Assembly (NCBI RefSeq): GCF_024181725.1 | Contig: NZ_CP028908.1 | Coordinates: forward strand, 3,027,501-3,091,500 | Length of the DNA stretch: 64,000 nucleotides | Reading direction: 5' to 3' | Source: Bradyrhizobium sp. WD16 | GTDB taxonomy: Bacteria; Pseudomonadota; Alphaproteobacteria; Rhizobiales; Xanthobacteraceae | Shown here: positions 16,357 to 63,996 of the stretch, in pieces | How the letters are laid out: the number at the start of each line of letters is the position of its first letter | Numbering within the stretch: the first letter of the stretch is position 1 | The notes under the pieces: generated by a model | What the model saw: the letters and a program-made list of their open reading frames with translations, nothing else | Told to the model about the DNA's origin: nothing | The model's database searches: none | Made by a program: the position numbers and the translations under genes

Positions 16357-16881
16357 GTGACGCGAATTGCCGATCCAGCCGATCCCGATCCCGAATCCGG
16401 TTCCGGCCGGCGGGTGCTCGGGGCCGTGCTCGTCGCCGCGGCGCTGGCGACCGGCGCGGCGCTGGCACAGGGCGGCAAAGCCGACCCTGGCAGATCCGAG
16501 CGCGGCAAGGCCGGCGCGAGGGCGCCGGCCGGGCTCTCGCACCAGGCACGCGAGTGGCGCGCCGCCAAACTGCCGGGCCTCAATGTCTACAACGATCGCA
16601 ACGAGAAGATCGGCGATATCAGCGATCTGATTGGCGACCGTTCCGGCAAGGTGGTGAGCGTGGTTATCGGCGTCGGCGGTTTTCTCGGCGTCGGCGAACA
16701 CTATGTCGCGGTGCCCCTCGACAAGTTGAAATGGTTCGACGCCCCCGGGCGCGAGGCCGTAGCCGGCGACACCGGCACCGGCGCGCCAGCGACCAATGTC
16801 GACAGCAACGCCAAGACGGCCGCCGATGGCGGTGCCCGGACCACCGGTGCGGCGCGCGGCTCGTCGCGTCACGTCAACTAG
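16357..16881 (+). CDS. PRC-barrel domain protein, exported or membrane-anchored
   Basis: 174 residues from a GTG start preceded by a near-perfect AGGAGG five bases upstream; an ATG 21 bases earlier is less well placed. The N-terminus has a hydrophobic segment (RVLGAVLVAAALATGAALAQ), a signal peptide or anchor. The PRC barrel begins about residue 75 with LNVYNDRNEKIGDISDLI and includes GVGGFLGVGEHYVAVPLDKL. The family is common in Bradyrhizobium; its role is unclear. Its TAG stop codon is the CTAG junction of a twin-hairpin element inserted there. Confidence 0.75.
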   Translation: MTRIADPADPDPESGSGRRVLGAVLVAAALATGAALAQGGKADPGRSERGKAGARAPAGLSHQAREWRAAKLPGLNVYNDRNEKIGDISDLIGDRSGKVVSVVIGVGGFLGVGEHYVAVPLDKLKWFDAPGREAVAGDTGTGAPATNVDSNAKTAADGGARTTGAARGSSRHVN

Positions 16882-17044
16882 TGTCCTGTCTCCGAATTAC
16901 CGCTCCATTTGCCTCACGCTCGCACGGTCATTCGGAGACATAAAGGACACTAGCAAAATCAAAGCGCTCGTGTGGCTTATGTCTCGCAATTGCCTACGAG
17001 AGGGTTGCCGCGAAGGCGGTAGGCAATTGCGAGACCCACACTAG
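16878..17044 (+). mobile_element. AB-type twin-hairpin element inserted at a CTAG stop codon
   Basis: Two hairpins (A 16878-16953, B 16967-17044) separated by the 13-base linker CAAAATCAAAGCG. The A outer arm begins CTAGTGTCCTGTCTCCGAAT. B ends with the inverted arm of CTAGTGTGGCGTCTCGCAAT (here one base short). Each hairpin has a clean outer arm and an inner arm with a 3-4 base bulge. Removing the element and one CTAG leaves the stop codon of the PRC-barrel gene unchanged. Confidence 0.9.
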
Positions 17045-17045
17045 G

Positions 17046-17060
17046 TTAGAATTGTTCCAC
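17046..17060. promoter_or_regulatory. Possible Irr-type iron control element
   Basis: TTAGAA-TTG-TTCCAC lies 82 bp before the cupredoxin start and immediately after the AB element. The left half fits the rhizobial Irr box (TTAGAA-N3-TTCTAA); the right half matches four of six bases. Supported mainly by its position before iron-uptake genes. Confidence 0.3.
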
Positions 17061-17141
17061 TTTAGAAGGAGTCTCTTTGCATCCCGCCGGGCCACTATTT
17101 TATGCAACATAGGTCACGAACGAGATGTTCAGAGGATCCTG

Positions 17142-17495
17142 ATGACCCGTTTGCCGAATATCATGACGAAGGCGCCCCTCGCCGCCACGCTCGCGCTCGC
17201 GGCGGCCTTTGTCACGCCGGCTGCAGCCCAGCAACTGGCGGAATTCCAGCTCACCCATGCCGACGGCGGGTTTCAGCCGGCCGAGCTCGCCGTTCCCGCC
17301 AACAAGGCGATCACCTTGCGGGTGAAGAATGCCGGCGCCAAGGCCATCGAGTTCGAGAGCAAGACGCTGCACGTCGAGAAGGTGATCGCCGCCGGCACCG
17401 AGGCGGTGGTGAATGTCAAGGCGCTGAAGCCTGGACGCTACGAGTATTTCGACGAGTTCAACGAAAAGGCACGCGGCGCCCTCGTCGCCAAGTAA
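17142..17495 (+). CDS. ftrB: Periplasmic cupredoxin-like iron-uptake protein (FtrB type)
   Basis: 117 residues: a signal peptide (ATLALAAAFVTPAAAQ), then a cupredoxin fold (FQLTHADGGFQPAELAVPAN, ITLRVKNAG, LHVEKVIAAGTEAVVNVKAL, RYEYFDEF). Proteins of this kind pair with FTR1 permeases in ferrous iron uptake (FtrABCD in Brucella and Bordetella) and are proposed to oxidise or hand over iron. The permease gene starts 10 bp downstream, so the two form an operon. A GAGGA site precedes the ATG. FtrA and FtrD partners are not adjacent, so the system looks partial here. Confidence 0.8.
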   Translation: MTRLPNIMTKAPLAATLALAAAFVTPAAAQQLAEFQLTHADGGFQPAELAVPANKAITLRVKNAGAKAIEFESKTLHVEKVIAAGTEAVVNVKALKPGRYEYFDEFNEKARGALVAK

Positions 17496-17505
17496 CGGGT
17501 TCGTC

Positions 17506-18351
17506 ATGCTGGCGGCGCTGATCATCGTCTTCCGCGAAGTCTTCGAGGCCGGGCTCATCGTCGGCATCGTGCTGGCGGTGACGCGCAGCGTTCCGCATCG
17601 TCACCTCTGGATCGGCGGCGGCGTCCTCGGCGGCGTCGCCGGCGCCTGTCTGGTGGCTGCCTTCGCCGGCGCGCTGTCGCAGCTGTTCGCCGGCATGGGC
17701 CAGGAGCTCTTCAACGCCGGCATCCTCGCCATCGCCGTGGTCATGCTGACCTGGCACAATGTCTGGATGGCGAGCCACGGCAAGCAGCTGGCCGGCGAAT
17801 TCGCGGCGATCGGACAGGCAGTCGCTTCCGGCAAGAAAACCCTGCTCGCGCTGGCGGTGGTGGTCGGTGTCGCCGTGATGCGCGAAGGCAGCGAGGTTGC
17901 GCTGTTCCTCTACGGCATCGTCGCCTCCGACGGCGGATCGTCGGCGGGGCTGGCGCTCGGCGGTGTGCTCGGCCTGCTGCTCGGCGCCGGCGTCTGCCTG
18001 ATGACCTATCTCGGCCTGGTGCGGATCCGGCCGCGCCTGCTGTTCGCCACCACCACCGTGCTGATCACGCTGCTGGCGGCGGGCATGGCGGCGCAGGCGA
18101 CGGCGTTTCTCGAACGCGCCGACTGGGTCACCGCGCTGTCCGCGACGGCATGGGATTCCGGCTGGCTGCTTGCCGAAGACGGCGTGCTCGGCAAGGCGCT
18201 GCACACCCTCGTCGGCTACACCGAGCAGCCGAGCATCATGCAGGTCGTGGTCTATGCCGCGACGATCGCGATCACCATCGCCTTGATGATGCTGACCGGC
18301 CGACACACTCCGCGGCCTGCAGCTGCCGCGGGACGACCGCTCGCCTCCTGA
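17506..18351 (+). CDS. ftrC: FTR1-family high-affinity iron permease (FtrC/EfeU type)
   Basis: 281 residues with about seven TM helices. Both iron-binding REXXE motifs are intact: FREVFEAGL at the start and MREGSEVAL in the middle. It imports iron, coupled to oxidation of ferrous iron, across the inner membrane. It follows the cupredoxin gene after 10 bp. The C-terminus ends in a short Pro/Ala-rich cytoplasmic tail. Regulation by iron is expected, and a weak Irr-like sequence lies before the operon. Confidence 0.88.
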   Translation: MLAALIIVFREVFEAGLIVGIVLAVTRSVPHRHLWIGGGVLGGVAGACLVAAFAGALSQLFAGMGQELFNAGILAIAVVMLTWHNVWMASHGKQLAGEFAAIGQAVASGKKTLLALAVVVGVAVMREGSEVALFLYGIVASDGGSSAGLALGGVLGLLLGAGVCLMTYLGLVRIRPRLLFATTTVLITLLAAGMAAQATAFLERADWVTALSATAWDSGWLLAEDGVLGKALHTLVGYTEQPSIMQVVVYAATIAITIALMMLTGRHTPRPAAAAGRPLAS

Positions 18352-18627
18352 CGCGCACCGGCGTGGATTGCACCGTCAGACGCAGTCTGGCCCGACGAAG
18401 AACTTGAAAGACCGAAAGATCGCCGGTGAGCCGAAAGCTCGCTCGCGCGCGCCATGCGTGGCGCAGCGGAACGCCGTGAAATGTGGACTGTGACAAGTGT
18501 TGTAGTTGCATAAATTCGCATGAGCATTAGCTTTGACCCCGCGAAACGGGCGGCGACCTGCGGGACTCGGCGGCTTGGGTGCGTTGCCTGAGCGTCCCGC
18601 GCATCGTGGACGGGAAAAGCAGAAAGG

Positions 18628-19062
18628 TCATTGCGCCGCCTTCCGCTTTTTGGTGCTCGGGGGCCGCGCATCTTCCTGGCTCGGCTCATCTGGCACCAAA
18701 CTATCGAGCGTCACTTTCAACGCATCCGCCAGCTTGCGCAGCGTTTGAACGTCGCCGCTTTTGCGCCCGACCTCGATCTCGGACAGATAACCTTGGGTGA
18801 TGCCCGCGCGTTTGGCTAGTTCATCCTGGCTCAAGCCGCGCTTTTTTCGGAAGAATGCGAGCGGCGTTTTCGCCGCAAGGAACGCATCAACCTCGGCGCT
18901 TGAGAAAGTTTCTTCCTCGCCGCTCGCGACGCGGACGATTGAGCGGCGCAGGGTCTCTACGTCGGCGGCGTCTTCATTGGCTGCGGCAACGAGTTGATCG
19001 TACTCCTTGCGGGACAAGATCACGATGTCATCGCCTTTCGGGCTTTTGGTCATCACGGGCAT
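18628..19062 (-). CDS. XRE-family HTH antitoxin
   Basis: 144 residues. The N-terminus (DDIVILSRKEYDQLVAAANE) resembles prevent-host-death/antitoxin N-domains. The C-terminal half is a helix-turn-helix: LAFFRKKRGLSQDELAKRAGITQGYLSEIEVGRKS. A Lys-rich tail ends the protein. It starts 12 bp after the stop of a truncated RelE-type toxin, so it was the second gene of a toxin-antitoxin operon. With the toxin gone it may act only as a repressor. Confidence 0.8.
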   Translation of the reverse strand: MPVMTKSPKGDDIVILSRKEYDQLVAAANEDAADVETLRRSIVRVASGEEETFSSAEVDAFLAAKTPLAFFRKKRGLSQDELAKRAGITQGYLSEIEVGRKSGDVQTLRKLADALKVTLDSLVPDEPSQEDARPPSTKKRKAAQ

Positions 19063-19074
19063 GTCGGTTTGTCC

Positions 19075-19190
19075 TTAGTCGTAAATCCCGCCGCGCGGGC
19101 CGCTATCGTGAATGGTGATGGTGTCGGCAGTCTCAGTAAACAGGATGCGAAAGCCTTGAACGCGCAACCGCTTCTGTCGGAGGCCTAGCC
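19075..19190 (-). pseudogene. 3' remnant of a RelE/ParE-type toxin gene
   Basis: Only the last 35 or so codons remain, ending ETADTITIHDSGPRGGIYD before TAA at 19075-19077. This is the usual C-terminus of RelE-type mRNA interferases, after RLRVQGFRILFTE. Upstream the frame runs into a stop and the 5' part has been replaced by the end of the neighbouring gene near 19185. It lies 12 bp before the XRE antitoxin start. Confidence 0.7.
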
Positions 19191-19821
19191 TGCCGAGGCA
19201 GCGCCGGCGATATGCTTGTCAGGCAATCGCGAGGCGATAGACACAAGCTTTTCCGTCATGAATAGCTCCTCCCAATAGCCAAAAGCCTTGATGAACCAAC
19301 GGCAGGCATCTTCCCGATGGTCGCCGTCGGCGATCGTAAGGCGCAAAATGAAGTCGCCGGGCTTCACATGCCCGGCCGCTTGGATGACAGGAAGCCATTC
19401 CGCCAAAGCCGTTACCTCGGGATCTACCTTGTTCTTACGCATGTGCTTTGAGCCGTTTGCAATCTCTCCACACACGTAGAGAAATCGGCAGTCCTTTGCG
19501 ACGGCTTCTTGAAAATCCTCCAAACCGTCTCGAAGGGCGTTTTTGCTGCCTTCGGTAAAATTGAGCCGATAACGCCGAGCCAGTACCGCGTATCTCGGGG
19601 CTCGATTGCCAAAGCCAGTCGGTGATGTGCCATGCAGTAACCGCAGCATTCCAAACGATGAAGAGCGGTTCTGGAAACTCGGTGCGCTTTGTCCAGACCG
19701 AAAGTGAGCTTGAGAGATGGTCGATCTCCCACAACAGCTTTGACAGCATATGCTGCGGCTTGTTGAGGGCGAAGACGTTTTGGATGTCGCTCGGTCTTGG
19801 TGCTTCCATTTTTACTGCCAT
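19185..19821 (-). pseudogene. Frameshifted hypothetical gene of the integrative island
   Basis: Two halves lie in different frames. The N-terminal half begins MAVKMEAPRPSDIQNVF and continues to NAAVTAWHITDWLWQSSPEI. The C-terminal half picks up at RRYRLNFTEGSKNALRDGLE and runs to KHIAGAASAG. The frame changes around 19590. Together they would give about 210 residues, a plausible single soluble protein of unknown function. Base composition is less GC-rich than the chromosome around it, consistent with acquired DNA. A sequencing indel is the alternative explanation. Confidence 0.6.
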
Positions 19822-19860
19822 CCACGTGGTAATAAGGTGCGCTCGTGCCCGCGCGCTCCA

Positions 19861-20178
19861 TCAGGCCACGGCCTTCTTTTTCGGCTTGGCTCGGGCCGGT
19901 TCTGCTACGAGCCGGATTCCCATGGCCCCGATGATCCGCAGGATGGTTGCGAATTCCGGGTTGCCATTCTCGCCGAGCGTCTTGTAAAGCCCCTCTCTGG
20001 TCACGCCAGCAGCCTTGGCAACCTCGCTCATACCCTGCGCTCGGGCGACGAGATTGAGGGCGTCGCGGACTTCGGCGGGATCACCATCGGCAAGAACGAG
20101 GTTGAGATACTCCGCACGTGCTTCCGGTGTGCGAAGGTGCTCGGCGGCGTCGAACTTCTTGAGTTTACTGACTTTCAT
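19861..20178 (-). CDS. HigA-like addiction-module antitoxin
   Basis: 105 residues: EHLRTPEARAEYLNLVLADGD then a helix-turn-helix region MSEVAKAAGVTREGLYKTLGENGNPEF. This is the hallmark of the putative addiction-module antidote family (TIGR02684-type). A basic C-terminal tail (PARAKPKKKAVA) follows. The ATG is two bases past the stop of the toxin gene. It should bind the toxin and the 36-bp palindrome upstream to autoregulate the operon. It remains intact. Confidence 0.88.
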   Translation of the reverse strand: MKVSKLKKFDAAEHLRTPEARAEYLNLVLADGDPAEVRDALNLVARAQGMSEVAKAAGVTREGLYKTLGENGNPEFATILRIIGAMGIRLVAEPARAKPKKKAVA

Positions 20179-20180
20179 CC

Positions 20181-20477
20181 TCAGTCCTCCAATGTCTCTG
20201 CGATTTCCTGGGCCTTCCGGATGTCCTTACTCTGGGTGCGCTTGTCGCCGCCGCAGAGTAGAATGACGACGGCCTTGCCGCGCCGAGTGTAATAAAGCCG
20301 GTATCCCGGGCCGTGGTCGATACGAAGCTCGCTAACCGCACCTCCGACCGACTTCGCATCGCCGAAGTTGCCAGCGGCAACCCGGCTGATCCGGCGAACG
20401 ATCTGCAAGCGTGCGCGCTGATCGCTCAGGCCGGCAAGCCAGTTTGTGAAGTCGGGTGTCTCGCGAACGTCGATGAT
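20181..20477 (-). CDS. HigB/RelE-type toxin without a recognisable start codon
   Basis: The frame encodes IDVRETPDFTNWLAGLSDQR and then LQIVRRISRVAAGNFGDAKS through to SKDIRKAQEIAETLED, the whole length of the TIGR02683-type toxin (about 98 residues). At the expected Met position the codons are ATC-ATC, and no ATG, GTG or TTG lies between the upstream TAA and a TTG 24 codons downstream of the second ATC. The toxin is therefore either silenced by start loss, started at ATC, or truncated. It is followed after two bases by its antitoxin gene. Confidence 0.7.
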   Translation of the reverse strand: MIDVRETPDFTNWLAGLSDQRARLQIVRRISRVAAGNFGDAKSVGGAVSELRIDHGPGYRLYYTRRGKAVVILLCGGDKRTQSKDIRKAQEIAETLED

Positions 20478-20512
20478 GGCGCGATTGTAATCTATAGATT
20501 ACAATCGCGCCA
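20477..20512. promoter_or_regulatory. 36-bp perfect palindrome, probable toxin-antitoxin operator
   Basis: TGGCGCGATTGTAATCTA followed by its exact reverse complement, with no mismatch. It overlaps the 5' end of the toxin frame. A weaker related palindrome, GTATCCGATGGATTAC, lies about 20 bp further upstream (20521-20536). Position and symmetry fit an autoregulatory operator bound by the antitoxin. Confidence 0.75.
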
Positions 20513-20532
20513 GCGAAAACGTATCCGATGGA

Positions 20533-20850
20533 TTACATTCTCAGGCGCCATGCCGTTGCGCGCCTGTTCGGTTTGCGATTTGCGCCGCCTTTCGTTTGCA
20601 CCTTACCCGCTGGCGCCGGGCCGATCGAAGGCATGTTGTTGATCGAGGGCGCGGCGTGCGCGACGTTGACGTGCGCATAGCGCAGCACCATCGAAAGGCT
20701 GGACCATCCGCCGAGGTGCATGAGCATGTTGAGATCGCGGTTTTCCTGATAGTGCCACGTCGCCCAGGTGTGGCGGCAATCGTGCGGGTGAAAGTCGGTG
20801 ATCTTGGCGCGGGTGACGGCGGCCCGTCGCGCGGGGCGTCGGGATCGAGC
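20533..20850 (-). pseudogene. C-terminal remnant of a phage-type tyrosine recombinase
   Basis: The last catalytic part is readable: FHPHDCRHTWATWHY, then LMHLGGWSSLSMVLRYAHVN. This holds the Arg-His box, the second His/Trp region and the nucleophile Tyr of tyrosine integrases. The tail after it, rich in Arg and Lys, ends at 20533. No N-terminal or core-binding domain can be found upstream and the reading frame decays near 20850. It marks the edge of the small island holding the toxin-antitoxin genes. Confidence 0.7.
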
Positions 20851-21219
20851 GGGCGCATAGGGCTCGCAAGGCGGCGCTCCACCGTGATCGCCAAGAGCGA
20901 GGCCGCCTCGTCCTCAAGCGGGCTGTCCTAATTCCCGAACGCACACCGAGAACTGACGGGCCGACCGTGGGTGCGATTGGGCGGATTTTGGGCGCACTTG
21001 TTCGTTATTTGGCGCTCAAAACTGTCACGAAGCGTACGATGGTGGCGTCGAAGGCCTTGTCTGCCAATAAGGCGTCGGCCTGACCGGCCGCAACGGGCGG
21101 CGCCCGGCTCATGTCGTTGCCGAGCCGGCGGCGTCCTGAAACCTCTGTCGAGGCCGAAGGGTCGGCCGTGCAGGGGAGAGTGGATCGCCGCTCTCGTCGC
21201 GTGACGGTCATTTCGCGCG

Positions 21220-21477
21220 CTATTTCTTTTGTTGCGGTTGGTAGTCGCAAATACAGGTCCCGGGTCTCGGGCAGGTTATTTTGCCCGTGCACGGTGCGTC
21301 CTTGGCCATGTTGACGCAGTCTTCCTTGTCTTTTGCGTTCTCGCACTTGCATTGACGATCGGTACCGCTGCACTGCCATCTCGCAGAAGGCTTCTGCGAT
21401 GGTCCTGCTGCAAATGACGCCGTTGACGCGGCCAGCAATACGGCAACAGCGCACGCGAAGAGGCTGGATCGGGACAT
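21220..21477 (-). CDS. Small secreted Cys-rich protein (8 Cys)
   Basis: 85 residues: signal peptide MSRSSLFACAVAVLLAASTA, then a mature part with eight cysteines: QCSGTDRQCKCENAKDKEDC and later APCTGKITCPRPGTCICD. The even Cys number suggests disulfide bonding in the periplasm or outside. An AGGGAGA site precedes the ATG. A perfect TTGAT-N4-ATCAA box lies 58 bp upstream. No family recognised. The CP..G.C.C motif recalls the Cys-rich protein at 52.5 kb. Confidence 0.65.
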   Translation of the reverse strand: MSRSSLFACAVAVLLAASTASFAAGPSQKPSARWQCSGTDRQCKCENAKDKEDCVNMAKDAPCTGKITCPRPGTCICDYQPQQKK

Positions 21478-21534
21478 GGCTGATCTCCCTGGTAATCGAA
21501 CTGTTTCATTATCGCCTGCCCAAGGGCGACGAGA

Positions 21535-21548
21535 TTGATCGGAATCAA
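21535..21548. promoter_or_regulatory. FNR/FixK-type box before the 8-Cys protein
   Basis: TTGATCGGAATCAA, an exact match to TTGAT-N4-ATCAA. It is centred about 64 bp before the ATG of the minus-strand Cys-rich gene. Confidence 0.65.
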
Positions 21549-21650
21549 GGGCACGAATACTCGGCTTCTCATACGACGCAACGGTTCGCTTCCGCGGCCG
21601 CCGCGAGCGCCTGACCGGGACGCCATGGTGATCGTCCTCGCAGCGCGGGA

Positions 21651-21944
21651 TCACTTGCAGGGAGTGGCCGCCGCTGTGCAGCGAACCATGCTCTTGGTCA
21701 CGATGCCGCAGTTCAGTTTCTTGGATGCCGCAGCTTCCCACGACGCGTAATCGGAACCCGCTTGTGTTCGCGCGGCAGCGTTCCAGACGGCGATTGCCGA
21801 TTTGCGCGCCACATCCTCATCGGTCCACATGCTCGAGGAACCGCTGGCGGTGACCACCATGCGCAGGCAGTGCTGTGCTACCGCCGGTTGCATGGCCGCG
21901 AGGACAAGAGCCACATTGTCCATCGTTTTGCTGGCAATTGACAT
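21651..21944 (-). CDS. Small secreted 4-Cys protein, paralogue of the gene at 52.2 kb
   Basis: 97 residues with a short signal peptide ending AAMQPAVAQ. The mature part begins CLRMVVTASGSSSMWTDED and contains SDYASWEAAASKKLNCG and KSMVRCTAAATPCK. Over the mature 72 residues it is about two-thirds identical to the protein at 52163-52465, and all four cysteines are conserved. A GGAGAGG site precedes the ATG, and an exact TTGA-N6-TCAA box lies 54 bp upstream. The function is unknown. Both copies sit beside a Cys-rich secreted protein. Confidence 0.7.
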   Translation of the reverse strand: MSIASKTMDNVALVLAAMQPAVAQHCLRMVVTASGSSSMWTDEDVARKSAIAVWNAAARTQAGSDYASWEAAASKKLNCGIVTKSMVRCTAAATPCK

Positions 21945-21997
21945 GGCAACAACCTCTCCGACATCCGATACGTCTAACGATGCGTCCGGCGCGACGG

Positions 21998-22011
21998 TTG
22001 ACGCAGATCAA
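21998..22011. promoter_or_regulatory. FNR/FixK-type box before the 4-Cys protein
   Basis: TTGACGCAGATCAA, TTGA-N6-TCAA. It lies 54 bp before the minus-strand 97-residue gene and about 90 bp before the decayed plus-strand gene at 22103, so it could serve both. Confidence 0.65.
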
Positions 22012-22432: not shown

Positions 22433-22438
22433 TCGACC

Positions 22439-22723
22439 GTGAAGAGCGAAGGAAAAGCGGCCCTTCGATGCTTGGGTATCCGTTGCATTGCGATCATTGT
22501 CGCGCTCACCCTGGCTCCGCGCGTCAGCCGCGCGCAGGTCACGCATCCGGGAATGATCGATGCCAGCTGCAGCTCCGGCTGCGATCTCGTCCATCGCAGT
22601 TGCGTGCGGCAGGAAGGCAAGATCAAGGGCGGGTTGCGTCAGTGTGATCTCGATCGCAAGGCGTGCAAGGAGCGCTGCCCCGATGCGCGGCCGGAGAGGC
22701 CTTCCAAACCCGACCTCCGTTAG
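22439..22723 (+). CDS. Small secreted Cys-rich protein
   Basis: 94 residues from GTG: signal peptide around CIAIIVALTLAPRVSRAQ, then a mature region with six cysteines (MIDASCSSGCDLVHRSCVRQ and QCDLDRKACKERCPDARP). Spacing resembles a small helical disulfide protein. It begins six bases after the end of the decayed Lys-rich gene and probably shared its transcript. The stop TAG coincides with the left end of a degenerate C-type hairpin. No family recognised. Confidence 0.6.
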   Translation: MKSEGKAALRCLGIRCIAIIVALTLAPRVSRAQVTHPGMIDASCSSGCDLVHRSCVRQEGKIKGGLRQCDLDRKACKERCPDARPERPSKPDLR

Positions 22724-22786
22724 TGGTGGTGGATCCGACGCTCGTATCGACATCGCAGCGAGTCCTTCGGACGAGCGCCAGAATTG
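22720..22786. repeat. Degenerate C-type hairpin
   Basis: Begins TTAGTGGTGGTGGATCCGAC and continues CGCTCGTATCGACATCGCAG, clearly related to the C hairpin (TGCGGTGGATCTGACGCTCG) found intact elsewhere, but with several changes. A second, weaker similarity occurs at about 22930-22986 (CGCTCG, GTATCAGC, CTTTCATTCGAGC). The 270-bp gap between the two secreted-protein genes therefore looks like eroded element sequence. Confidence 0.55.
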
Positions 22787-22993
22787 CCTGCACCAGAGCC
22801 CGCGAGGCCTCCCGTGGTCAAGGCACACGGGTATGGCGTCCGTTGTCAGGACGCCACGGTCCCTCCGCCGTTGCAGCCGCAGGTTTTTCTGGCTTGTGAG
22901 CGCACCTTCCCGTAGCTATACCGCTCAGATCCAACGCTCGCGCCGTATCAGCGACGCCGTCCGTTGCGTTGCTGCTTTCATTCGAGCCCCGCG

Positions 22994-23815: not shown

Positions 23816-23982
23816 CTAGTGTGGCGTCTCGCAATTGCCTACCGCCTTCGCGGCAAGCCTCTCGTAGGCAATTGCGAGACATAAGCCACACTAGCACTTT
23901 GATTTTGCTAGTGTCCCTATGTCTCCGAATGACCGTGCGAGCGTGAGGCAAACGAAGCGGTAATTCGGAGACGGGACACTAG
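23816..23982 (-). mobile_element. AB-type twin-hairpin element, reverse orientation
   Basis: B hairpin (23816-23894), 13-base linker CACTTTGATTTTG (the reverse complement of the usual linker), A hairpin (23908-23982), with CTAG at all four hairpin ends. Total 167 bp, so 163 bp plus one CTAG copy. Intergenic, between the 259-residue secreted protein and tRNA-Val. Confidence 0.9.
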
Positions 23983-26410: not shown

Positions 26411-26488
26411 CTAGTGCGGTGGATCAGACGCTCGTTTCAGCAGTGCAGCGAGTTCTTCATACGAGCGTCAGATCCAAAACCGCACTAG
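26411..26488. repeat. Solo C-type hairpin flanked by CTAG
   Basis: A 78-bp hairpin: CTAGTGCGGTGGATCAGACG, a roughly 20-base loop, and an inner arm with the AAA bulge before CCGCACTAG. The expected D hairpin to its right is missing and unrelated sequence follows, so this is half of a DC element. It lies between the divergent DUF1134 and YHS genes and adds a strong hairpin to that promoter region. Confidence 0.85.
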
Positions 26489-27889: not shown

Positions 27890-28055
27890 CTAGTGTCCCG
27901 TCTCCGAATGACCGCTTCGTTTGCCTCACCCTAGCACGGTCATTCGGAGACATCGGGACACTAGCAAAATCAAAAAGCTAGTGTGGCTTATGTCTCGCAA
28001 TTGCCTACAGGGGCTTGCCGCGAAGGGCATAGGCAATTGCGAGACGCCACACTAG
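27890..28055 (+). mobile_element. AB-type twin-hairpin element abutting the cysQ ribosome site
   Basis: A hairpin 27890-27964, 13-base linker CAAAATCAAAAAG, B hairpin 27978-28055. Its right-hand CTAG is shared with a CD element that follows without any gap. It lies between cysQ and chpT, in a 524-bp gap that is almost entirely element sequence. Confidence 0.9.
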
Positions 28056-28218
28056 TGCGGTGGATCTGACGCTCGTATCAGTATTGCAGCGAACTCTTCA
28101 TACGAGCGTCAGATCCAAAACCGCACTAGAATCATCGTGATGCTAGTGTCCCTTTGGTTCTAACGTTCGTAGAAGTGCGCGCTGCGAGGGAATACGAACG
28201 TTAGAACCGGGACACTGG
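28052..28218 (-). mobile_element. DC-type element (C then D) sharing CTAG with the AB copy
   Basis: C hairpin 28052-28129, 13-base linker AATCATCGTGATG, D hairpin 28143-28218. The far end reads CTGG instead of CTAG, a single change. D carries TTCTAACGTTCGTA arms. The three-junction array CTAG-AB-CTAG-CD-CTGG is what one insertion into the junction of an older one would leave. Confidence 0.9.
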
Positions 28219-47177: not shown

Positions 47178-47330
47178 CTAGTGTCCCGGCTCTAACGTTC
47201 GTATGCCGTTGCAGCGAGCGTTAGAACCAAGGATCACTGGCAGAATATAATTTTAGTGCGGTTTTGGATCTGACGCGCGTACGACGAATTCGCTGCAATG
47301 CAGATACGAGCGTCAGATCCACCGCACTAG
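47178..47330 (+). mobile_element. Degenerate DC-type element between dnaG and rpoD
   Basis: D hairpin from CTAGTGTCCCGGCTCTAACG (47178) to GGATCACTGG (about 47240), with the inner arm shortened by about ten bases. A 12-base linker and a full-length C hairpin (47253-47330) follow; the left C end reads TTAG. The 410-bp dnaG-rpoD gap otherwise shows no gene. The element lies about 130 bp before the rpoD start. Confidence 0.8.
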
Positions 47331-50770: not shown

Positions 50771-50937
50771 CTAGTGTCCCGGTTCTAACGTTCGTATCCC
50801 TTTGCTGCGAGCACTCATACGAACGTTAGAACCAAAGGGACACTAGTATAGCTATGATTCTAGTGCGGTCTTGGATCTGACGCTCGTACGATGAGTTCGC
50901 TGCAATGCTGATACGAGCGTCAGATCCACCGCACTAG
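50771..50937 (+). mobile_element. DC-type element inside the LysE gene (first insertion)
   Basis: D hairpin 50771-50846, 13-base linker TATAGCTATGATT, C hairpin 50860-50937; CTAG at every hairpin end. The host sequence CACA-CTAG-CGCG is restored exactly on removing 163 bp plus nothing else, so CTAG was either duplicated or used as the junction. D outer arm: CTAGTGTCCCGGTTCTAACG. Confidence 0.93.
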
Positions 50938-51337: not shown

Positions 51338-51504
51338 CTAGTGTCCCGTTTCCAACGTTCGTATCCCATTGCAGCGGGCGCTCATACGAACGTTGGAAAC
51401 AAGGGGACACTAGCATCATTATGATTCTAGTGTGGTTTTGGATCTGACGCTCGTTTGAAGAACTCGCTCCAATGCTGAAACGAGCGTCAGATCCACCACA
51501 CTAG
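51338..51504 (+). mobile_element. DC-type element near the 3' end of the same LysE gene (second insertion)
   Basis: D hairpin 51338-51413 (variant arms TTTCCAACGTTCGTAT, with matching changes on both arms), 13-base linker CATCATTATGATT, C hairpin 51427-51504 with outer arms CACACTAG. Paired changes keep the stem intact. Removal restores AAG-CTA-GCG-TTC and the natural stop codon. Confidence 0.93.
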
Positions 51505-52883: not shown

Positions 52884-53050
52884 CTAGTGTCCTGTCTCCG
52901 AATTACCGCTTCATTTGCCTCACCCTCGCACGGTAATTCGGAGACATAAGGACACTAGCAAAATCAAAGCGCTAGTGTGGCTTATGTCTCGCAATTGCCT
53001 ACGAGAGACTGGCCGCAAAGGCGGTAGGCAATTGCGAGACGCCACACTAG
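52884..53050 (+). mobile_element. AB-type element at the stop codon of the cyclase gene
   Basis: A hairpin 52884-52958, linker CAAAATCAAAGCG, B hairpin 52972-53050, CTAG at all ends. On the minus strand its right-hand CTAG supplies the TAG stop of the cyclase gene; removal leaves that stop in place, so the protein end is unchanged. Confidence 0.92.
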
Positions 53051-57952: not shown

Positions 57953-59665
57953 TCAGGGCGTCGCCGGGGCCGGCGGCCGCCTCAGGCCGCGGCGATCCTT
58001 GACGTAGCCGATCGGCACGCCCATGCGCTGGATGGTGACGATCACCTTGCCGTCGAGAATGCGGTCGCAGTTCATGTGGGTCGGCGCGATGAAGAAATCG
58101 GCCTGTTCCCAGCGCTGCATCCGGATCCATTGCAATAGACGCGACTTGGCCCGGTGCTCGAAGGCGATGCGTTCGCCGCAGACCGCGACCGTGTAGCGGT
58201 GCGGCGCGCGGCTGACCGCGCCGGTGTGCTCGGTGCGGGTGAGATAGGATTCCAGGCCCTCGACCGCGGCCGGCATGATGTTGACCCAGTAATCGGTGTC
58301 GTAGCGCCGCGACGCGCCCTCGAGGCCGCCGACCATCGAGTTGTAGAAGAGATATTCGTAAGGATGCAGGCGCACCAGCGTGGTCGCGTCCCAGAGCAGG
58401 GCGGCGCCGAACACCGCGAGCGCGGCGCTCGCCAACAGGCCGCTGCGCGCGGCGAGCGCGCCGGCACCGAGATCGAGACCTGCCCCGGCCAGAACGGCGA
58501 GCAGCGGCACGACGAACAGGAAATGACGTAGACCCGTGAAGGCGGGGCCGTGGCAGATCACCTGCATCGCGAGCGGGAAGATCACCATGGTGCCCACCAG
58601 GGCGATGTCCCTGCGCCGCACCGGTCCCGCCGCAAGCCGGGGCAGGGCCGCAAAAGCCAGCGCCAGGGCTGCGCCGCACAAGGTCAGCAGCGGCACGCGC
58701 ACCAGGATGTAGATCGGCACATAGAGCCGCGGCACGCTGGCCATCTCGTAGACCTGCCCGGCCAGGATGGTGCGGATGTGATATTGAAACTCCGAAAAGG
58801 CGAACAGGCCGCGGATTGGATTGAGCGGCGCCAGCGCCGCCCAGGGCCAGGCCAGGATCATCAGCGCATAGGCGATCAGCGCCGCCGGCAGCAGCGCCCG
58901 CACGGACGCCAGCGCGAATTGGAAGTTGTCCCGCCAGTCGTCGCGGCTTCCTCCGCGCAGCGGCTTCGGCAGCGCCATGACGATGGCGAGCGCGGCATAG
59001 AAGAACAGCAACAGGCCGAGGACCCGCATGCCGAGCGCGGCCCCGGTGAGCAGCCCGAGCATGGCGACATCCGCCGGACGCGGGGTCGGCAACCGACGGG
59101 CGCAGCGGATCAGGAAGAAGGTTGCGCCGGCCATCGCCGCGGCGAGCGGGATGTCCTTGGTGTGGTTGAACATCGCGCCATACCAGGGACCGCAGACCGC
59201 GAGCGACAGCGCCGCGAGCAGGCCGGCCCTTTGGCCGGCGACCTGGCGGGCAACGCCGGCTGCGGCGGCGATGCCGCTGACGCCGGTCAAGGCGCAGAGA
59301 ATATGGCGCAGATCGTAGGGGTCGATCGGCAGCAGCTGGCCGAGCAGCACGGCGACGATGTCGAACAGGCCGCCATAGAGATAGAGATTCTCGAAGGAGA
59401 AGACGCTGCGGTCGACCAGCCCGCTGCGGTAATAGGCAATGATCAGTTCGCCGTAATGGTGCTGGACGCCCTCATCGTTGGAAATGGCGTAGGCGCGAAA
59501 GGTGAAGAGCGCAATCACCACCAGCGCGGCGATCAGCGCCCAACTGGCGAGATCGAACGGGTCGCAGGCGGCGAGCCGCCGCAGCACGGCGCCGCGGACG
59601 GACAGCCGGGCCGTGTCTCGCGGGGCGGACCCCGCGAGCGGTCGAGTGGAGACGAATTCCGTCAT
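57953..59665 (-). CDS. GT-C type membrane glycosyltransferase (GT39/ArnT-like)
   Basis: 570 residues with about eleven TM helices. An acidic loop after the first helix (FRAYAISNDEGVQHHYGELI) provides the expected Asp/Glu pair of GT-C enzymes, and MFNHTKDIPLAAAMAGATFF follows. The C-terminal 130 residues are soluble and periplasmic (YEYLFYNSMVGGLEGASRRY). It likely transfers a sugar from a polyprenyl carrier to an envelope acceptor; donor and acceptor are unknown. It stands alone. Confidence 0.75.
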   Translation of the reverse strand: MTEFVSTRPLAGSAPRDTARLSVRGAVLRRLAACDPFDLASWALIAALVVIALFTFRAYAISNDEGVQHHYGELIIAYYRSGLVDRSVFSFENLYLYGGLFDIVAVLLGQLLPIDPYDLRHILCALTGVSGIAAAAGVARQVAGQRAGLLAALSLAVCGPWYGAMFNHTKDIPLAAAMAGATFFLIRCARRLPTPRPADVAMLGLLTGAALGMRVLGLLLFFYAALAIVMALPKPLRGGSRDDWRDNFQFALASVRALLPAALIAYALMILAWPWAALAPLNPIRGLFAFSEFQYHIRTILAGQVYEMASVPRLYVPIYILVRVPLLTLCGAALALAFAALPRLAAGPVRRRDIALVGTMVIFPLAMQVICHGPAFTGLRHFLFVVPLLAVLAGAGLDLGAGALAARSGLLASAALAVFGAALLWDATTLVRLHPYEYLFYNSMVGGLEGASRRYDTDYWVNIMPAAVEGLESYLTRTEHTGAVSRAPHRYTVAVCGERIAFEHRAKSRLLQWIRMQRWEQADFFIAPTHMNCDRILDGKVIVTIQRMGVPIGYVKDRRGLRRPPAPATP

Positions 59666-59793
59666 GGCCCCCCGGCACCGGCATCGCCCCAGGCTGGGCT
59701 GCCGGCAATCGACCGCCCTAGTTAGGCTGGCAGCGGCCTCGCCGCCAAGTGGCCAAAAGGCGACAATTCATGCTGCAGCTGCGAGGGCTGCGG

Positions 59794-60903
59794 TCACACC
59801 ACGACGCTGAGGCGTTTGGCGGCGCGGGTGATCCCGGTATAGAGCCAGCGGGCGCGGGTTTCGGCAAAGGCGAAGCTTTCGTCGAACAGCACGATGTCGT
59901 CCCACTGCGAGCCCTGGGACTTGTGCACGGTGAGGACGTAGCCGAAATCGAACTCGTCGTAGGGCTTGCGCTGTTCCCAGGGAATATCCTCCATCCCGCC
60001 GGCGAAGCAGTCGGCGCGCACCGACACCTTCGTCACCTTGCCGCCGAAATCCTCGTCCGGCGACAGCCGCATGGTGACGATGCGCGACTTGGATTGCGCC
60101 CGCGCCTTGACCCGCCACAGCCCGCCGTTGAACAGCGCCTTCTTGCGGTTGTTGCGCAGACAGACGAGCTTGTCGCCGGCCACGGGCAGCGGATCCTCGA
60201 TGCCGAGGCGCTGGCGGACGCGCATATTGTAGGCCCGGCGTGTCGCATTGCGTCCGACCAGGATCTGGTCGGCGCCCATCACCCGCGCCGGGTCGAGCCG
60301 GTCGCGCGGCACCACCTCGCTGTCGCCATAGCTGCCGATCTCCAGCTCCTCGCCGGCGCGGACCGCCATGGACATGCGCACGATCGGGTCGTCCTTGGCC
60401 TGGCGGTGCACTTCGGTCAGCATGGCGTCGGGCTCGGCGGAGGTGAAGAAGCCGCCGCCCTGGATCGGTGGCAGCTGCGCCGGATCGCCCAGCACCAGCA
60501 GCGGTGCACTGAAGGACAACAGATCGCGGCCGAGCTCGGCGTCGACCATCGAGCATTCGTCGATGATGATCAGCTTGGCTTTCGAGGCGGGGGCATCGTC
60601 CCACAATTCGAAATTCGGCTGTTCCTCGCCGGTCTCCCGGGCGCGGTAGATCAGCGAGTGGATGGTCGAGGCGCCTTCGCAGCCCTTGTTGCGCATCACC
60701 AGCGCCGCCTTGCCGGTGAAGGCGGCGTATTTGACCGCGCCGTCGACGCCTTCGGCGATATGCCGGGCGAGGGTGGTCTTGCCGGTGCCGGCGAAGCCGA
60801 ACAGCCGGAAGACCAGCGGCGTGCCGTTCCGCCCGGGCTTGGCCTTGAGCCAGTCGGCGACGGCGCGAAGGGCGGCGTCCTGGTGGGGCGTGAAAGTGGT
60901 CAT
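59794..60903 (-). CDS. RecD/Dda-like superfamily 1 DNA helicase
   Basis: 369 residues. Walker A GFAGTGKTTLARHIA, Walker B LIIIDECSMVDAELGRDLL, motif III LVLGDPAQLPPIQGGGFF, and the C-terminal motifs YVLTVHKSQGSQWDDIVLFD and ARWLYTGITRAAKRL. The small size and lack of RecB-interaction domains fit Dda/Pif1-like stand-alone helicases that unwind 5' to 3'. Start at MTTFTPHQDAALRAVADWL, as usual in the family. Likely repair or fork processing. Confidence 0.88.
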   Translation of the reverse strand: MTTFTPHQDAALRAVADWLKAKPGRNGTPLVFRLFGFAGTGKTTLARHIAEGVDGAVKYAAFTGKAALVMRNKGCEGASTIHSLIYRARETGEEQPNFELWDDAPASKAKLIIIDECSMVDAELGRDLLSFSAPLLVLGDPAQLPPIQGGGFFTSAEPDAMLTEVHRQAKDDPIVRMSMAVRAGEELEIGSYGDSEVVPRDRLDPARVMGADQILVGRNATRRAYNMRVRQRLGIEDPLPVAGDKLVCLRNNRKKALFNGGLWRVKARAQSKSRIVTMRLSPDEDFGGKVTKVSVRADCFAGGMEDIPWEQRKPYDEFDFGYVLTVHKSQGSQWDDIVLFDESFAFAETRARWLYTGITRAAKRLSVVV

Positions 60904-61048
60904 CGGTGGCTGGTTACAGGCTTTCTGGGGCGGGACAAAGATCGAACGGGTCGTGTACATACCGCAGCCTGGCACCTTGGCGTCAAGCCCGGCAGCCGGG
61001 CGGCAGCTATGATATGCACCCTCAGGCGACAAGGTGGGGAAGGAACCG

Positions 61049-61252
61049 ATGCACCAGCGCAGCAGCAAGTCCGGGTCCAGATCCGCGCCGCCCCGGCGCG
61101 TGCGCCGGCGCCTCCTCGCCGCTGCGGTGACGGTCCTTGCCCTCCTGGTCCTCGCCGTCGCCGGCTATATCGTGGTCAAGCGCCTGACCCGGCCGGACCC
61201 GCTGAAGCCCTTCCAGATCTACCGCTCGCCGGACGCGCCGGAATATTCGTGA
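61049..61252 (+). CDS. Small single-TM hypothetical protein
   Basis: 67 residues: a very basic N-terminus (RSAPPRRVRRRLL), one TM helix (AAVTVLALLVLAVAGYIVVK) and a short outside tail ending DAPEYS. A GGGGAAGGAACC ribosome site lies before the ATG. Divergent from the helicase gene. Function unknown. Confidence 0.6.
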   Translation: MHQRSSKSGSRSAPPRRVRRRLLAAAVTVLALLVLAVAGYIVVKRLTRPDPLKPFQIYRSPDAPEYS

Positions 61253-61831
61253 ATAGGGGCGGCGCCGCGCGCGTGCTGATTGATGATGGGGCTGGCGCGG
61301 AGCCTGCTCAAAATTCTGCTGTCGCCCTCCACGCAAGTGGAGGGCCCAGTAAATGGTGAGGTGGCTGTGGTGCACCGCGGCTGACGTGTGCAAGCCAGCG
61401 ATCCCCTGTACTGGGTCGCCCGGTCAAGTCGGGCGGTGACGGCGGAGAGAGGGGCGTCGTCGCCAGCAAACGAAGCGCAGCCGCAATCGGCCGTCATGGC
61501 CGGGCTCCGTTGTTCAGCCCGGGGACATAGCGGACGCCTGTTTGGAGACATGACCGACACTTTTACGTTTGGTCACGTCGATGGTTGCGATTTGGTGGGA
61601 GGGCAAGCAGATGGCGTATTGGCCGTCCTTGGCGCGCAGTTAAATTCTCTCCGTCACGGCCGGGCTTGTCCCGGCCGTCGACGTCTTCCTTTGCCGAGAT
61701 GCTCAAAGTCGTGGATGGCCGGGACAAGCCCGGCCATGACGAGAATAAAGCTCAAGCAGCATCTTTTCGCCCGCTTTGCGAGCATGCACCGCGTCCTGCA
61801 TCGCATCGCATCGCATCGCGCAGAGCGGCGC
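61253..61831. repeat. 579-bp gap with palindromic repeats, no gene seen
   Basis: A large inverted repeat at 61652-61741: CGTCACGGCCGGGCTTGTCC near the left and GGACAAGCCCGGCCATGACG near the right, separated by a 26-base loop. It is the same style as the 38.8 kb unit and typical of Bradyrhizobium-type genomes. Another weak palindrome (CGCCCGGTCAAGTCGGGCG) is near 61410, and GCATC is repeated four times near 61798. No open frame with coding character is visible. Confidence 0.65.
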
Positions 61832-62161
61832 TCAATGCGCGGCCGATTTCGAGAACAGGTTGATGACCGCCACGCCGACGATGATGAAGCCGATGCCGAT
61901 CATCGCTGGGACGTCGAGGCGCTGGCCGAGAAACAGCCAGCCGATGATCGAGATCAGCACGATGCCGATGCCTGACCACAGCGCGTAGGAAATTCCGACC
62001 GGGATCTTGTCGAGCGTCAGCGAGAGAAAATAGAACGCGATGCCGTAGCCGATGACGACGATCAGCGAGGGGGCGAGCCTGCTGAAGCCTTCCGACGATT
62101 TCAGCGCCGTCGTCCCCAACACCTCGCCGCAGACGGCGACCACCAGATAGACCCATTTCAT
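61832..62161 (-). CDS. SMR-family multidrug efflux protein (EmrE/QacE type)
   Basis: 109 residues, four TM helices. The essential Glu14-equivalent is in [40 protein letters not shown] and [20 protein letters not shown] are the family signatures. It exports cationic drugs or guanidinium-like compounds in exchange for protons as a dimer. An AAGGAGA site precedes the ATG. It lies 32 bp after the interrupted amidohydrolase gene on the same strand, so its transcription may have been affected by that insertion. Confidence 0.9.
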
Positions 62162-62193
62162 CGACGCACTCTCCTTCAGCGTTTCTCCGCGGG

Positions 62194-63996
62194 CTATTCG
62201 TGCCTGACCTGGCCGTTCATCACGGTCATCACCACCCTCGTCTTGTGGATGTCGTGCGGCGCGACTTCGAACAGGTTCTTCTCCAGCACGACCAGATCGG
62301 CCAGTTTTCCGACCTCGATCGAGCCGATCATCCGGTCCAGTCCGAGCTGGTAGGCCGAACCCCTCGTGTTGGCCCGCAGCGCCTCGTCCAGGCTGACCCG
62401 CTCGTCGACGGGCGGCAGCGGCGGCTGGTCCGGCTTGTTGAGCTCGCGCCGCGTGGTCGCGATCTCGATCGCCTCCAGCGGCCGATAGGTGCTGTAGTAG
62501 CCGGCCGCGGGCCAGTCCGTGCCGAACGACAGATTGTCGCCGTGGCGACGGATGGAATTCATCTGCATCAGCGACTGCGAGCGTTCCGGCCCCAGGCGCT
62601 GCCGCGTCACTCCCGTGTTGGTCTGGTCCGGCACCGGCCACTGGGCCTGAAATTGCGCCGTGACGCCGAGCCGGCCGAAACGCGGAATATCCTGCGGCGA
62701 GACGACCAGCAGATGCGCCAAGGCGTGGCGGCGGTCGTGCGGCGGATTGGCCTTGATGGCGGCTTCGATCGCGTCGAGAGATAGACGTGTGGCCCGATCG
62801 CCATAGGAGTGCACGTGGATGTCGATGCCGTCCCGATCCGCCCGGCGGACGGTGTCCTTGAACAGGTCGGGGGGCAGCAGGGTGTCGCCGCTCGTGACGG
62901 GATCGTCGCTGTAGGGCGCGAGCATCGCCGCGGTGCGCTGCGGATCGCCGCCGTCGATGTTCAGCTTGAGGATGGAGGCCTGGACGAGTTCGGAACGGAA
63001 TCGCCGCCGCAACGCCTTGATCCGCGGGACGGGATCGATCGCGGGATCGTTGTGGTAGGTCGAGCCGACGACCCGGAAGGGCAGCTTCCCCTCGCGCTCC
63101 AGGCTCATGTAGATCCCGAAACCGACCTGTTCGGGCAGGAGGATCATTCCGGCGTCATACACCGCCGTGATTCCCGCTGCGGAAGCCTTCGGCAGCCACT
63201 CCTCGAGCGATCGGGTGATGTAGTCCGGCGTGAAGGGGGAGACCGCCTTGACGACGTGAAAGACCGCGGGCGGCTCGACCAGATAGCCGGTGGCTTCTCC
63301 GCTGGCCGGGTCGCGCTGGAAATAACTGAAGCCGGGGAGCGGGTCCTTCGTCGCCTTCGTCACCTTGGCCATTGCCAGGGCTTTGGAATTGACCCAGGCG
63401 GAATGGCCGTCGATCGCAATCAGAATCATCGGAGTGTCGGGCCAGAGCTGGTCGAGATCCGCCTTGCGCGGCCCGCTTGCCGGGAAGGCGTTGTAGCGCC
63501 AGCCGAAGCCGCGCACGACGTCGACTTTCCCGATCCTAGTGTCCTGTCTCCGAATTACCGCTTCATTTGCCTCACCCTCGCACGGTAATTCGGAGACATC
63601 AGGACACTAGCAAAATCAAAAAGCTAGTGTGGCTTATGTCTCGCAATTGCCTACAGGGGCTTGCCGCAAAGGACATAGGCAATTGCGAGACGCCACACTA
63701 GCGCGATAGGCTTTGAGCGCCTCGATGGTCTCGTCGCGCGTATCGAACTGAAGGTCAACGCCTCTGGTGACCACGGATCCGACCATGGGGTGGATGTGAG
63801 CTTCGACGAAGCCCGGCAGCAGCATCCTTCCCGCCAGATCGATGACCCGCGTGCCCGGCCCGACGAAGGCTTGAACGCCGGCGTCGTCGCCGACGTAGAC
63901 GATGCGCTTGCGCCGGACGGCCACCGCCCGCGCCCATTCCCGACCGCCGCTGACGGTGTAGACGGCGCCATTGCGGAAGACGATGTCCGCCTTCAT
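62194..63996 (-). pseudogene. Amidohydrolase (YtcJ-like, family 3) gene interrupted by an AB element
   Basis: The N-terminal piece (63702-63996) begins MKADIVFRNGAVYTVSGGRE and has LLPGFVEAHIHPMVGS with the metal-binding HxH. The C-terminal piece (62194-63535) begins VVRGFGWRYNAFPASGPRKA and includes [31 protein letters not shown] and [17 protein letters not shown]. Removing the 162-bp insert restores KAYRA-RIGKVDVV in frame and about 546 residues, normal for the family. As found, a stop inside the element ends the first piece. The native enzyme would hydrolyse an unknown amide or ester. Confidence 0.88.
63536..63701 (+). mobile_element. AB-type element inside the amidohydrolase gene
   Basis: A hairpin 63536-63610, linker CAAAATCAAAAAG, B hairpin 63624-63701; CTAG at each hairpin end. 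162 bp plus one CTAG copy, divisible by three, but the element contains stops in the host frame. It is nearly identical to the copies at 27.9 and 52.9 kb, so recently active. Confidence 0.92.

What the first reader, a model, noticed from the sequence alone, without database searches (positions are those of the whole stretch)
16878..63701. Two families of ~163-bp twin-hairpin mobile elements (AB and DC) at CTAG
Nine near-complete copies, one solo hairpin and at least one degenerate copy lie in 64 kb (16878, 23816, 26411, 27890, 28052, 47178, 50771, 51338, 52884, 63536; degenerate at 22720). Each unit is CTAG-hairpin-CTAG-13 bases-CTAG-hairpin-CTAG, about 163 bp plus one CTAG. The outer arm of each hairpin is clean and the inner arm carries a 3-4 base bulge, so each unit is mirror-symmetric. 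AB and DC share this plan and length but differ in most bases. Both orientations occur. No transposase is in the window. I do not know a described family with this layout; an IS5-like MITE (CTAG-type target) or a Y1/RAYT-type hairpin element are the nearest ideas.
Basis: partly seen in the sequence, partly recalled or inferred. Interest (0 to 1): 0.9.

Follow-up and report, generated by a model that had tools for sequence, protein, structure and literature searches.

The report
Twin-hairpin mini-transposons moved by IS630
These short doubled hairpins are mini-transposons without genes of their own that have spread through many alphaproteobacterial genomes, very probably by borrowing the enzyme of an ordinary IS630 insertion sequence, and their unusual twin-hairpin build is the new part.

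Summary
In detail: the window holds nine twin-hairpin units, one solo hairpin and one degenerate copy, and the genome holds 417 CTAG-linker-CTAG junctions against 5 for the reversed pattern. Whole units move: 7 of 49 sampled units sit at an inner CTAG of another unit whose uninterrupted form exists elsewhere, and four window sites lack units in relatives. The mover looks neither IS5-like nor RAYT-like. An IS630-family element of this genome (IS-d, nine copies) also lies between CTAGs and has ends matching the A and B outer arms at 20/24 and 18/24 positions. Three of five tested IS fit the units of their own genome best. So AB is best read as an IS630-type MITE inserting at the TA of CTAG. Unusual is the build: each end doubles back into a hairpin, unlike six inspected IS ends; paired arms change together across genera; and 98 of 98 unit hairpins carry a 2-4 base bulge on the inner arm, which I infer mis-spaces that arm so that only the whole unit moves. 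DC has no clear helper here. New variant of a known kind.

The parts
16878..17044 (+). AB unit (A hairpin, 13-bp linker, B hairpin); one inner CTAG eroded to CTCG
22721..22798 (+). degenerate C-like hairpin, begins TTAG
23816..23982 (-). AB unit in reverse orientation (BA)
26411..26488 (+). solo C hairpin; absent from the corresponding interval of G001 and G002
27890..28055 (+). AB unit sharing its last CTAG with the next unit
28052..28218 (-). DC unit in reverse orientation (CD); outer end eroded to CTGG
47178..47330 (+). eroded DC unit, 153 bp, inner CTAGs lost
50771..50937 (+). DC unit
51338..51504 (+). DC unit
52884..53050 (+). AB unit; A hairpin 52884-52958, linker 52959-52971, B hairpin 52972-53050
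63536..63701 (+). AB unit

Best explanation
AB is a MITE of an IS630 (Tc1/mariner) subgroup. It has no gene. Shown: whole units insert at CTAG, leaving CTAG on both sides; an IS630 in the same genome (IS-d, 360-aa transposase) sits in the same kind of site and has similar terminal sequences. Inferred: the IS-d transposase (or a close relative) binds the two outer arms, cuts at the TA of the flanking CTAGs and pastes the unit into the TA of another CTAG. Each end is doubled back into a hairpin. The inner arm repeats the recognition sequence but with 2-4 extra bases between it and its CTAG, while the IS ends compared have the outer-arm spacing. I infer that inner arms can be bound but not properly cut, so single hairpins do not leave alone and the unit moves whole. 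DC is the same kind of element; its helper was not identified in this genome.
For: (1) Unit mobility: 7 of 49 units examined are base-precise nested insertions, DC inside AB at G000 76599, 89741, 257347, 373150, 3343692 and AB inside DC at 3003315, 3351304, each with uninterrupted paralogues; 24 neighbouring hairpin pairs share one CTAG; four window sites lack units in G001 and G002 (in G001 alone for 47178). (2) Helper: IS-d, nine copies, 6 of 6 scored copies identical in protein; IS630 by NCBIfam, 254 bits against cut-off 100. Its ends CTAGTGTTCCGTCTCGCAAATCAG and CTAGTGTCCTGACTCTCAATTGCC match B CTAGTGTGGCGTCTCGCAATTGCC at 18/24 and A CTAGTGTCCTGTCTCCGAATTACC at 20/24. (3) Five IS scored against twelve unit families: G000 IS-d fits its own AB best (30/40, next 27), G035 IS its own G2/G1 units best (30, next 23), SB17 IS its own AB best (29, next 28); 20,000 random pairs against G000 AB reached 25 at most. 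IS-d relatives have ends such as CTAGTGTCCCGAGTCACAAGTTCG, close to the A consensus over many genera; 19 of 32 such ends score above 0 on the unit-arm matrices, 0 of 12 ends of other CTAG-flanked IS (hand-sorted, see limits). (4) Target: 26 of 34 IS630 copies of G000 lie in or against an AB or DC unit, 25 of them at a CTAG; three IS-a copies at TTAG, CTAA and TTAA targets show that TA is duplicated and that this IS begins with G. IS630 preference for TA in CTAG: title of Tenzen and Ohtsubo 1991 in a reference list. (5) Bulge on the inner arm in 98 of 98 unit hairpins.
Against: Presence of IS-d relatives and of units correlates only weakly over 296 family genomes: 15 of 43 IS-positive genomes have at least 3 junctions, 53 of 253 IS-negative ones do (hand tally; at most 6 candidates per genome were scored). 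Unit-rich G543 (344 junctions), G474 (218) and G497 (97) show no IS-d-like match at the 1e-40 limit. Two of five IS did not fit their own genome's AB best: the CP20 IS fitted Nitrobacter AB (29) above its own (27), and the Nitrobacter IS fitted the G035-type units (29) far above its own AB (19). DC fits IS-d poorly (21/40). Of 14 named genomes with units, 4 gave no DDE_3 match at all, and G005 and G027 have units but no IS-d-like match. No transposition was observed. TA against CTAG duplication cannot be read off the units themselves.
Confidence: 0.9

Rival explanations
1. A REPIN-like element: paired hairpins mobilised as single-stranded DNA by a RAYT (Y1, HUH) transposase that reads the hairpin, its bulge and the foot tetranucleotide.
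For: Two inverted hairpins with bulges, feet with a fixed tetranucleotide, strong pairing conservation; bulge and GTAG foot matter for TnpA-REP (PMC8266576, passages). Y1_Tnp matches occur in 4 of the 6 genomes with an AB match and in 13 of the other 54.
Against: Only one Y1_Tnp gene in G000, with unrelated ends, beside a truncated A hairpin; of the 25 Y1 loci fetched from relatives only one has an intact CTAG hairpin near it, where a Y1 gene that I read as IS200-type lies against a unit; G027 has units but no Y1 match. Foot is CTAG on both sides, not GTAG on one. An IS630 supplies matching ends.
Confidence: 0.04
2. An IS5- or IS701-type MITE with a 4-bp CTAG duplication.
For: CTAG on both sides; an element that I read as IS701-like also sits between CTAGs at G000 190862-192377 (family from recall).
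Against: Its ends do not resemble A to D. Of 275 outer arms found by their stems, 246 are preceded by CTAG; among single changes 6 hit the first base, 13 the second, 8 the third and none the G (two further arms have CCCG and GTCT), which fits TA duplication with the G inside the element. IS5 transposases were not searched for.
Confidence: 0.03
3. Selected host function (terminator, mRNA stabiliser, nucleoid site) is the main reason for the spread and the paired arms.
For: Stable hairpins; the four window sites compared lie between blocks conserved in relatives.
Against: Sites differ between relatives, units nest in each other, and stem changes are almost all changes on both sides (145 cells against 4 one-sided), which points to DNA rather than RNA.
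Confidence: 0.03

Closest known systems
IS630-family MITEs (Correia/NEMIS, RUP, Nezha; their IS630 link is from recall)
   Same: No gene, terminal sequences shared with a resident IS630, TA as target, short, high copy number
   Different: Here each end is its own long bulged hairpin, with a 12-14 base linker between; about 163 bp plus CTAG; found in many alphaproteobacterial families
CIR elements of Caulobacter and Brucella (seen only through PMC2229807 passages; the original paper is not held)
   Same: Two long inverted-repeat arms joined by a linker, TA at the termini, Alphaproteobacteria
   Different: CIR is about 110 bp with GANTC at a loop; of the intact sampled units AB has no GANTC (0 of 36), DC has it (13 of 13), at the linker edge in the window units; sequences not compared
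REPIN/BIME with RAYT (PMC3116915, PMC8266576, passages)
   Same: Inverted pair as the mobile unit, solos as likely remnants, nesting
   Different: REPs are 20-40 bp with GTAG foot and a Y1 transposase; here 75-79 bp hairpins, CTAG on both feet, ends like an IS630
Br-REP1/Br-REP2 of Bradyrhizobium (PMC5082802, passages)
   Same: Intergenic palindromes in related bacteria
   Different: The printed consensus sequences differ and show no CTAG ends

Membership tests
IS630-type MITE | No transposase gene inside | tested here: met
   units are 166-167 bp
IS630-type MITE | Terminal sequences shared with an IS630 of the same genome | tested here: met
   met for AB against IS-d, 30/40; not met for DC in this genome (21/40)
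IS630-type MITE | Insertion at TA with TA duplication | tested here: inconclusive
   CTAG target shown by nested copies; TA duplication read from three IS-a copies and only suggested for units by NTAG variants
IS630-type MITE | Moved by the IS630 transposase in trans | not testable with these tools
   needs bench work
REPIN/RAYT | GTAG (or GTGG) foot 5' of a 20-40 bp hairpin | tested here: not met
   CTAG on both feet, 75-79 bp as a rule
REPIN/RAYT | RAYT gene flanked by the same hairpins | tested here: not met
   in G000 a truncated A hairpin lies on one side only
REPIN/RAYT | Inverted hairpin pair is the mobile unit | tested here: met
CIR | Two hairpin arms joined by a linker | tested here: met
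CIR | About 110 bp | tested here: not met
   166-167 bp
CIR | GANTC at a hairpin loop | tested here: not met
   AB 0 of 36 units; DC 13 of 13, but at the linker edge in the two intact DC units and the CD unit of the window

The most novel reading that the evidence does not exclude
A single old MITE lineage of Alphaproteobacteria has kept one twin-hairpin body plan while its arms track the changing DNA specificity of whichever IS630 is resident. The mis-spaced inner arms are a built-in lock: they hold transposase or form a cruciform but cannot be cut, so that only the whole pair moves. CIR and perhaps other two-arm repeats of the class, whose mobility has been unexplained, would be members of the same lineage.
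Probability: 0.3. Interest if true: 0.72.

Novelty: new variant of a known kind. Interest (0 to 1): 0.52.

Why it matters
It names a likely mover for a very abundant class of alphaproteobacterial repeats and makes it testable with one small transposase. By hand tally, 68 of 296 family genomes have three or more junctions and 35 have ten or more (a single junction means little, since the reversed control pattern occurs up to 19 times per genome). The co-changing arms and the one-sided bulge offer a natural set of variants for studying how a Tc1/mariner-type transposase reads its ends. Intact unit hairpins hold 313 of 521 CTAGs of the 800-kb sample, and units take 26 of the 34 IS630 copies of the genome, so they may act as landing sites that draw IS away from genes. 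The two-arm CIR repeats, whose mechanism of mobility a review calls open (PMC2229807, passage), may be explained in the same way.

Tried and rejected
RAYT/Y1 as mover: Pfam Y1_Tnp in G000 and 59 relatives, flanks of the 25 loci fetched from relatives scanned; disfavoured. An IS inside a unit as the autonomous form: the 1281-bp gap at G000 122447-123729 holds an element with two ORFs that I read as IS3-type (family from recall); the 1552-bp gap in L143 is a DDE-type IS (my reading) in a tip with a 9-bp duplication CTCCACTAG; three further gaps of 2.4-4.1 kb were not examined for genes. L381, where an IS-d relative lies between mirror-image hairpins of another type, reads as an IS inserted at a CTAG between two inverted copies of another repeat, not as an autonomous twin-hairpin element. 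A conserved gene next to units: clustering of ORFs from 80 named loci gave nothing that I recognised as a transposase (clusters judged by eye from their first residues). Plasmid collection: no match to one AB unit. Viral contigs: three contigs with junctions, beside genes that by eye look like phage packaging or host genes. Rfam at gathering threshold: only a tRNA in the window. The idea that DC is an older, dying family was dropped: mean pairwise identity is 0.937 for 36 AB and 0.936 for 13 DC units. A search for the tip letters in papers: 428 papers, 40 listed, none of which looked relevant from its title. The statement that I found no description of this element rests on ten paper searches in an open-access library that lacks most subscription journals.

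Limits: the hairpin finder demands perfect CTAG tips and good pairing, so the 99% pairing is partly by selection. In one search I sorted IS ends by hand into 16 IS-d-group IS (one example per end type) and 6 others; two of the six others (L326, L396) are themselves matched by the IS-d protein at 38-41% identity, so counted by protein it would be 19 of 36 against 0 of 8; the genomic background there still contains degenerate units. Searches scored only 40 of about 400 candidates. Alignments A1 and A2 have 30 rows each, 28 chosen by hand for spread from 46 and 48 thinned hairpins plus two window rows, one of them a D or C hairpin.
Full report
What is there. The window lies at G000:C1:3027501-3091500 of a 5,945,179-bp single-contig genome. 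The eleven places in the finding hold what was described. A hairpin has a 9-bp foot (CTAGTGTCC, CTAGTGTGG or CTAGTGCGG), a 2-4 base bulge on the inner arm, an upper stem of about 14-18 bp and a loop of about 20 bases. A unit is two such hairpins in mirror image around a 12-14 base A/T-rich linker. Both folded units are far more stable than shuffles.

Scale. An 800-kb sample of the genome holds 167 intact hairpins: 64 A, 56 B, 23 C, 23 D and one poorly matching D-like. The whole genome has 293 exact AB-type junctions in a near-equal strand split, 139 and 154, and 417 junctions of the looser type. Over the class the exact junction is rare and patchy: 3 of 385 genomes including this one. In the family, by hand tally, 68 of 296 genomes have three or more of the looser junctions and 35 have ten or more; G543 has 344. 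The tool's count of 106 genomes with at least one includes noise, as its reversed control occurs up to 19 times in a genome.

It moves as a unit. Of 49 complete units in the sample, seven sit inside another unit, exactly at one of its inner CTAGs, and the uninterrupted version of the host unit exists elsewhere: one CTAG in the empty site, CTAG-unit-CTAG in the filled one. In relatives, L065 and L068 (G005) have an AB-type pair inside a second pair type whose uninterrupted form is in L063 (G035). At four window sites the corresponding intervals of G001 and G002 (G001 only for 47178) hold no unit, though they are too diverged for a base-precise junction; the hairpin finder sees none in the G001 contig, and in the fetched G002 stretch only one unit of another type outside these intervals.

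The mover. A scan for inverted repeats flanked by CTAG in the sample turned up insertion sequences of about 1.05-1.5 kb. A DDE_3 search found 34 IS630-type copies in the genome, which I sort into IS-a (15), IS-b (10) and IS-d (9, counting 4539171). IS-d ends read CTAGTGTTCCGTCTCGCAAATCAG and CTAGTGTCCTGACTCTCAATTGCC. The second matches the A outer arm of the unit at 52884 at 20 of 24 positions and the first matches its B arm at 18 of 24. The IS-d protein is an IS630 transposase with helix-turn-helix and DDE_3 domains. The IS ends do not double back: over the six ends of IS-d and of the IS in L364 and L351, the best inverted repeat of the terminal 20 bases within 130 bases scores 9-11 of 20, against 16 and 15 for the A and B ends of a unit.

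Agreement elsewhere. In G035 the IS630 ends CTAGTGGATCGAATCTAACACTTG and CTAGTGGATCGCGTCTGACATTTG resemble that genome's own G2 and G1 arms, 30/40 together. In the Hyphomicrobiaceae MAG SB17 one IS end matches the local B arm at 22 of 24. The score table of five IS against twelve unit families is: three fit their own genome's units best (SB17 by one point only), the CP20 IS does not (27 own, 29 best foreign), and the Nitrobacter IS fits the G035-type units (29), not its own AB (19). IS-d relatives from the family have ends such as CTAGTGTCCTGAACCAGAAGTTCG and CTAGTGTCCCGAGTCACAAGTTCG, near the A consensus of many genera, CTAGTGTCCCGAWTCCGAAGTTCG (my reading). On matrices built from unit arms, 19 of 32 such ends score above zero against 0 of 12 ends of other CTAG-flanked IS. 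That sorting was mine: two of the six 'others' are matched by the IS-d protein at 38-41%, which makes it 19 of 36 against 0 of 8 if sorted by protein; IS-a, IS-b and the IS701-like element are in the 0 group either way.

Results against. Over 296 family genomes the association of IS-d relatives (43) with units (68 with three or more junctions) is weak, 15 of 43 against 53 of 253, with several unit-rich genomes lacking a match. Four of 14 named unit-bearing genomes gave no DDE_3 match. DC has no good partner in G000 (21/40 with IS-d); an IS630 end in G471, CTAGTGTTGTGTTTCTAACGCTTG, resembles the D arm by eye.

Target. Of the 34 IS630 copies, 26 lie in or against an AB or DC unit: 12 of 15 IS-a, 8 of 10 IS-b, 6 of 9 IS-d; 25 of these are at a CTAG and one (L306) at a TTAG inside a D arm. 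Three IS-a copies, in TTAG, CTAA and TTAA targets, show that only TA is duplicated and that the element starts with G. For the units, 275 outer arms found by their stems in 1.1 Mb were preceded by CTAG 246 times; single changes hit the first base 6 times, the second 13, the third 8 and the G never, with one double change and one unrecognisable foot. This fits the same rule but does not prove it. ISY100 work reports TA duplication for this family (PMC2170065, abstract and passages).

The twin hairpin. Arms change together: in 30 hairpins with CTAGTGTCC tips 13 of 23 pairs have changes on both sides and 99.3% of cells pair; in 30 hairpins with CTAGTG-TGG or -CGG tips 13 of 23 and 99.0%. One-sided changes, which an RNA helix would tolerate as G-U, number 0 and 4 cells, against 56 and 89 double ones. 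This argues for a DNA-level constraint: a cruciform, two inverted binding sites, or arm homogenisation by template switching. The bulge lies on the inner arm in 98 of 98 unit hairpins, 2, 3 or 4 bases long in 1, 61 and 36. Read outward, the inner arm therefore has the recognition sequence 2-4 bases further from its CTAG than the outer arm and the compared IS ends do. My inference, not shown, is that this spoils cutting at the inner arms.

Verdict. AB is an IS630-type MITE with an unusual twin-hairpin build (0.9 for IS630-type; about 0.8 that IS-d or a near relative is the helper; about 0.35 for the bulge-as-lock idea). Closest described layout: CIR. Membership in CIR was not testable beyond the three features listed.

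Noticed in passing
L076 (G000:C1:54293-57613): The genome's only Y1_Tnp gene, with ends containing GGTGACAGTGCACTTAATT, abuts a truncated A hairpin whose other half is missing.
   Followed up: partly
G000:C1:122447-123729: An IS (read as IS3-type, two ORFs) has inserted next to the inner CTAG of an AB unit and splits its linker.
   Followed up: partly
L143:10099-11650 (G005): A DDE-type IS has inserted in a hairpin tip with a 9-bp duplication CTCCACTAG; with other cases this suggests that units are landing sites for several IS families.
   Followed up: partly
L147:1187-1350 (G035): A Y1 transposase gene (read as IS200-type) lies directly against the end of a CTAGTGCC-type unit.
   Followed up: no
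L381:1295-2696 (G693): An IS-d relative lies at a CTAG between two mirror-image copies of another repeat, each made of a hairpin beginning CTAGAGCGTTTTC and a 44-bp CTAG-bounded hairpin CTAGAGCTTCGG; a second kind of CTAG-bounded hairpin pair.
   Followed up: partly
G000:C1:123800 (and perhaps 63600): A repeat beginning GTTTTTGTTTTGACGCGTTTTC, bounded by CTAG, abuts units; related to the first hairpin of L381.
   Followed up: no
G000:C1 around 99733, 236020, 3137399: Another repeat with the end CTAGAGCCTGTCCTCA recurs, once directly against an AB linker.
   Followed up: no
DC units, e.g. window 28129, 50856 and 51423: 13 of 13 intact DC units of the sample carry a GANTC site, at the linker edge in the window units, while 0 of 36 AB units carry any.
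   Followed up: partly
window 6105-8719: Two tandem paralogous ORFs (437 and 420 aa), 72-87% alike over long stretches (direct repeats D2, D6, D7).
   Followed up: no
G000:C1 4839-4910, 192374-192445: A hairpins of 72 bp with no bulge, i.e. nearly perfect palindromes; 4 of 69 hairpins outside complete units lack the bulge.
   Followed up: no
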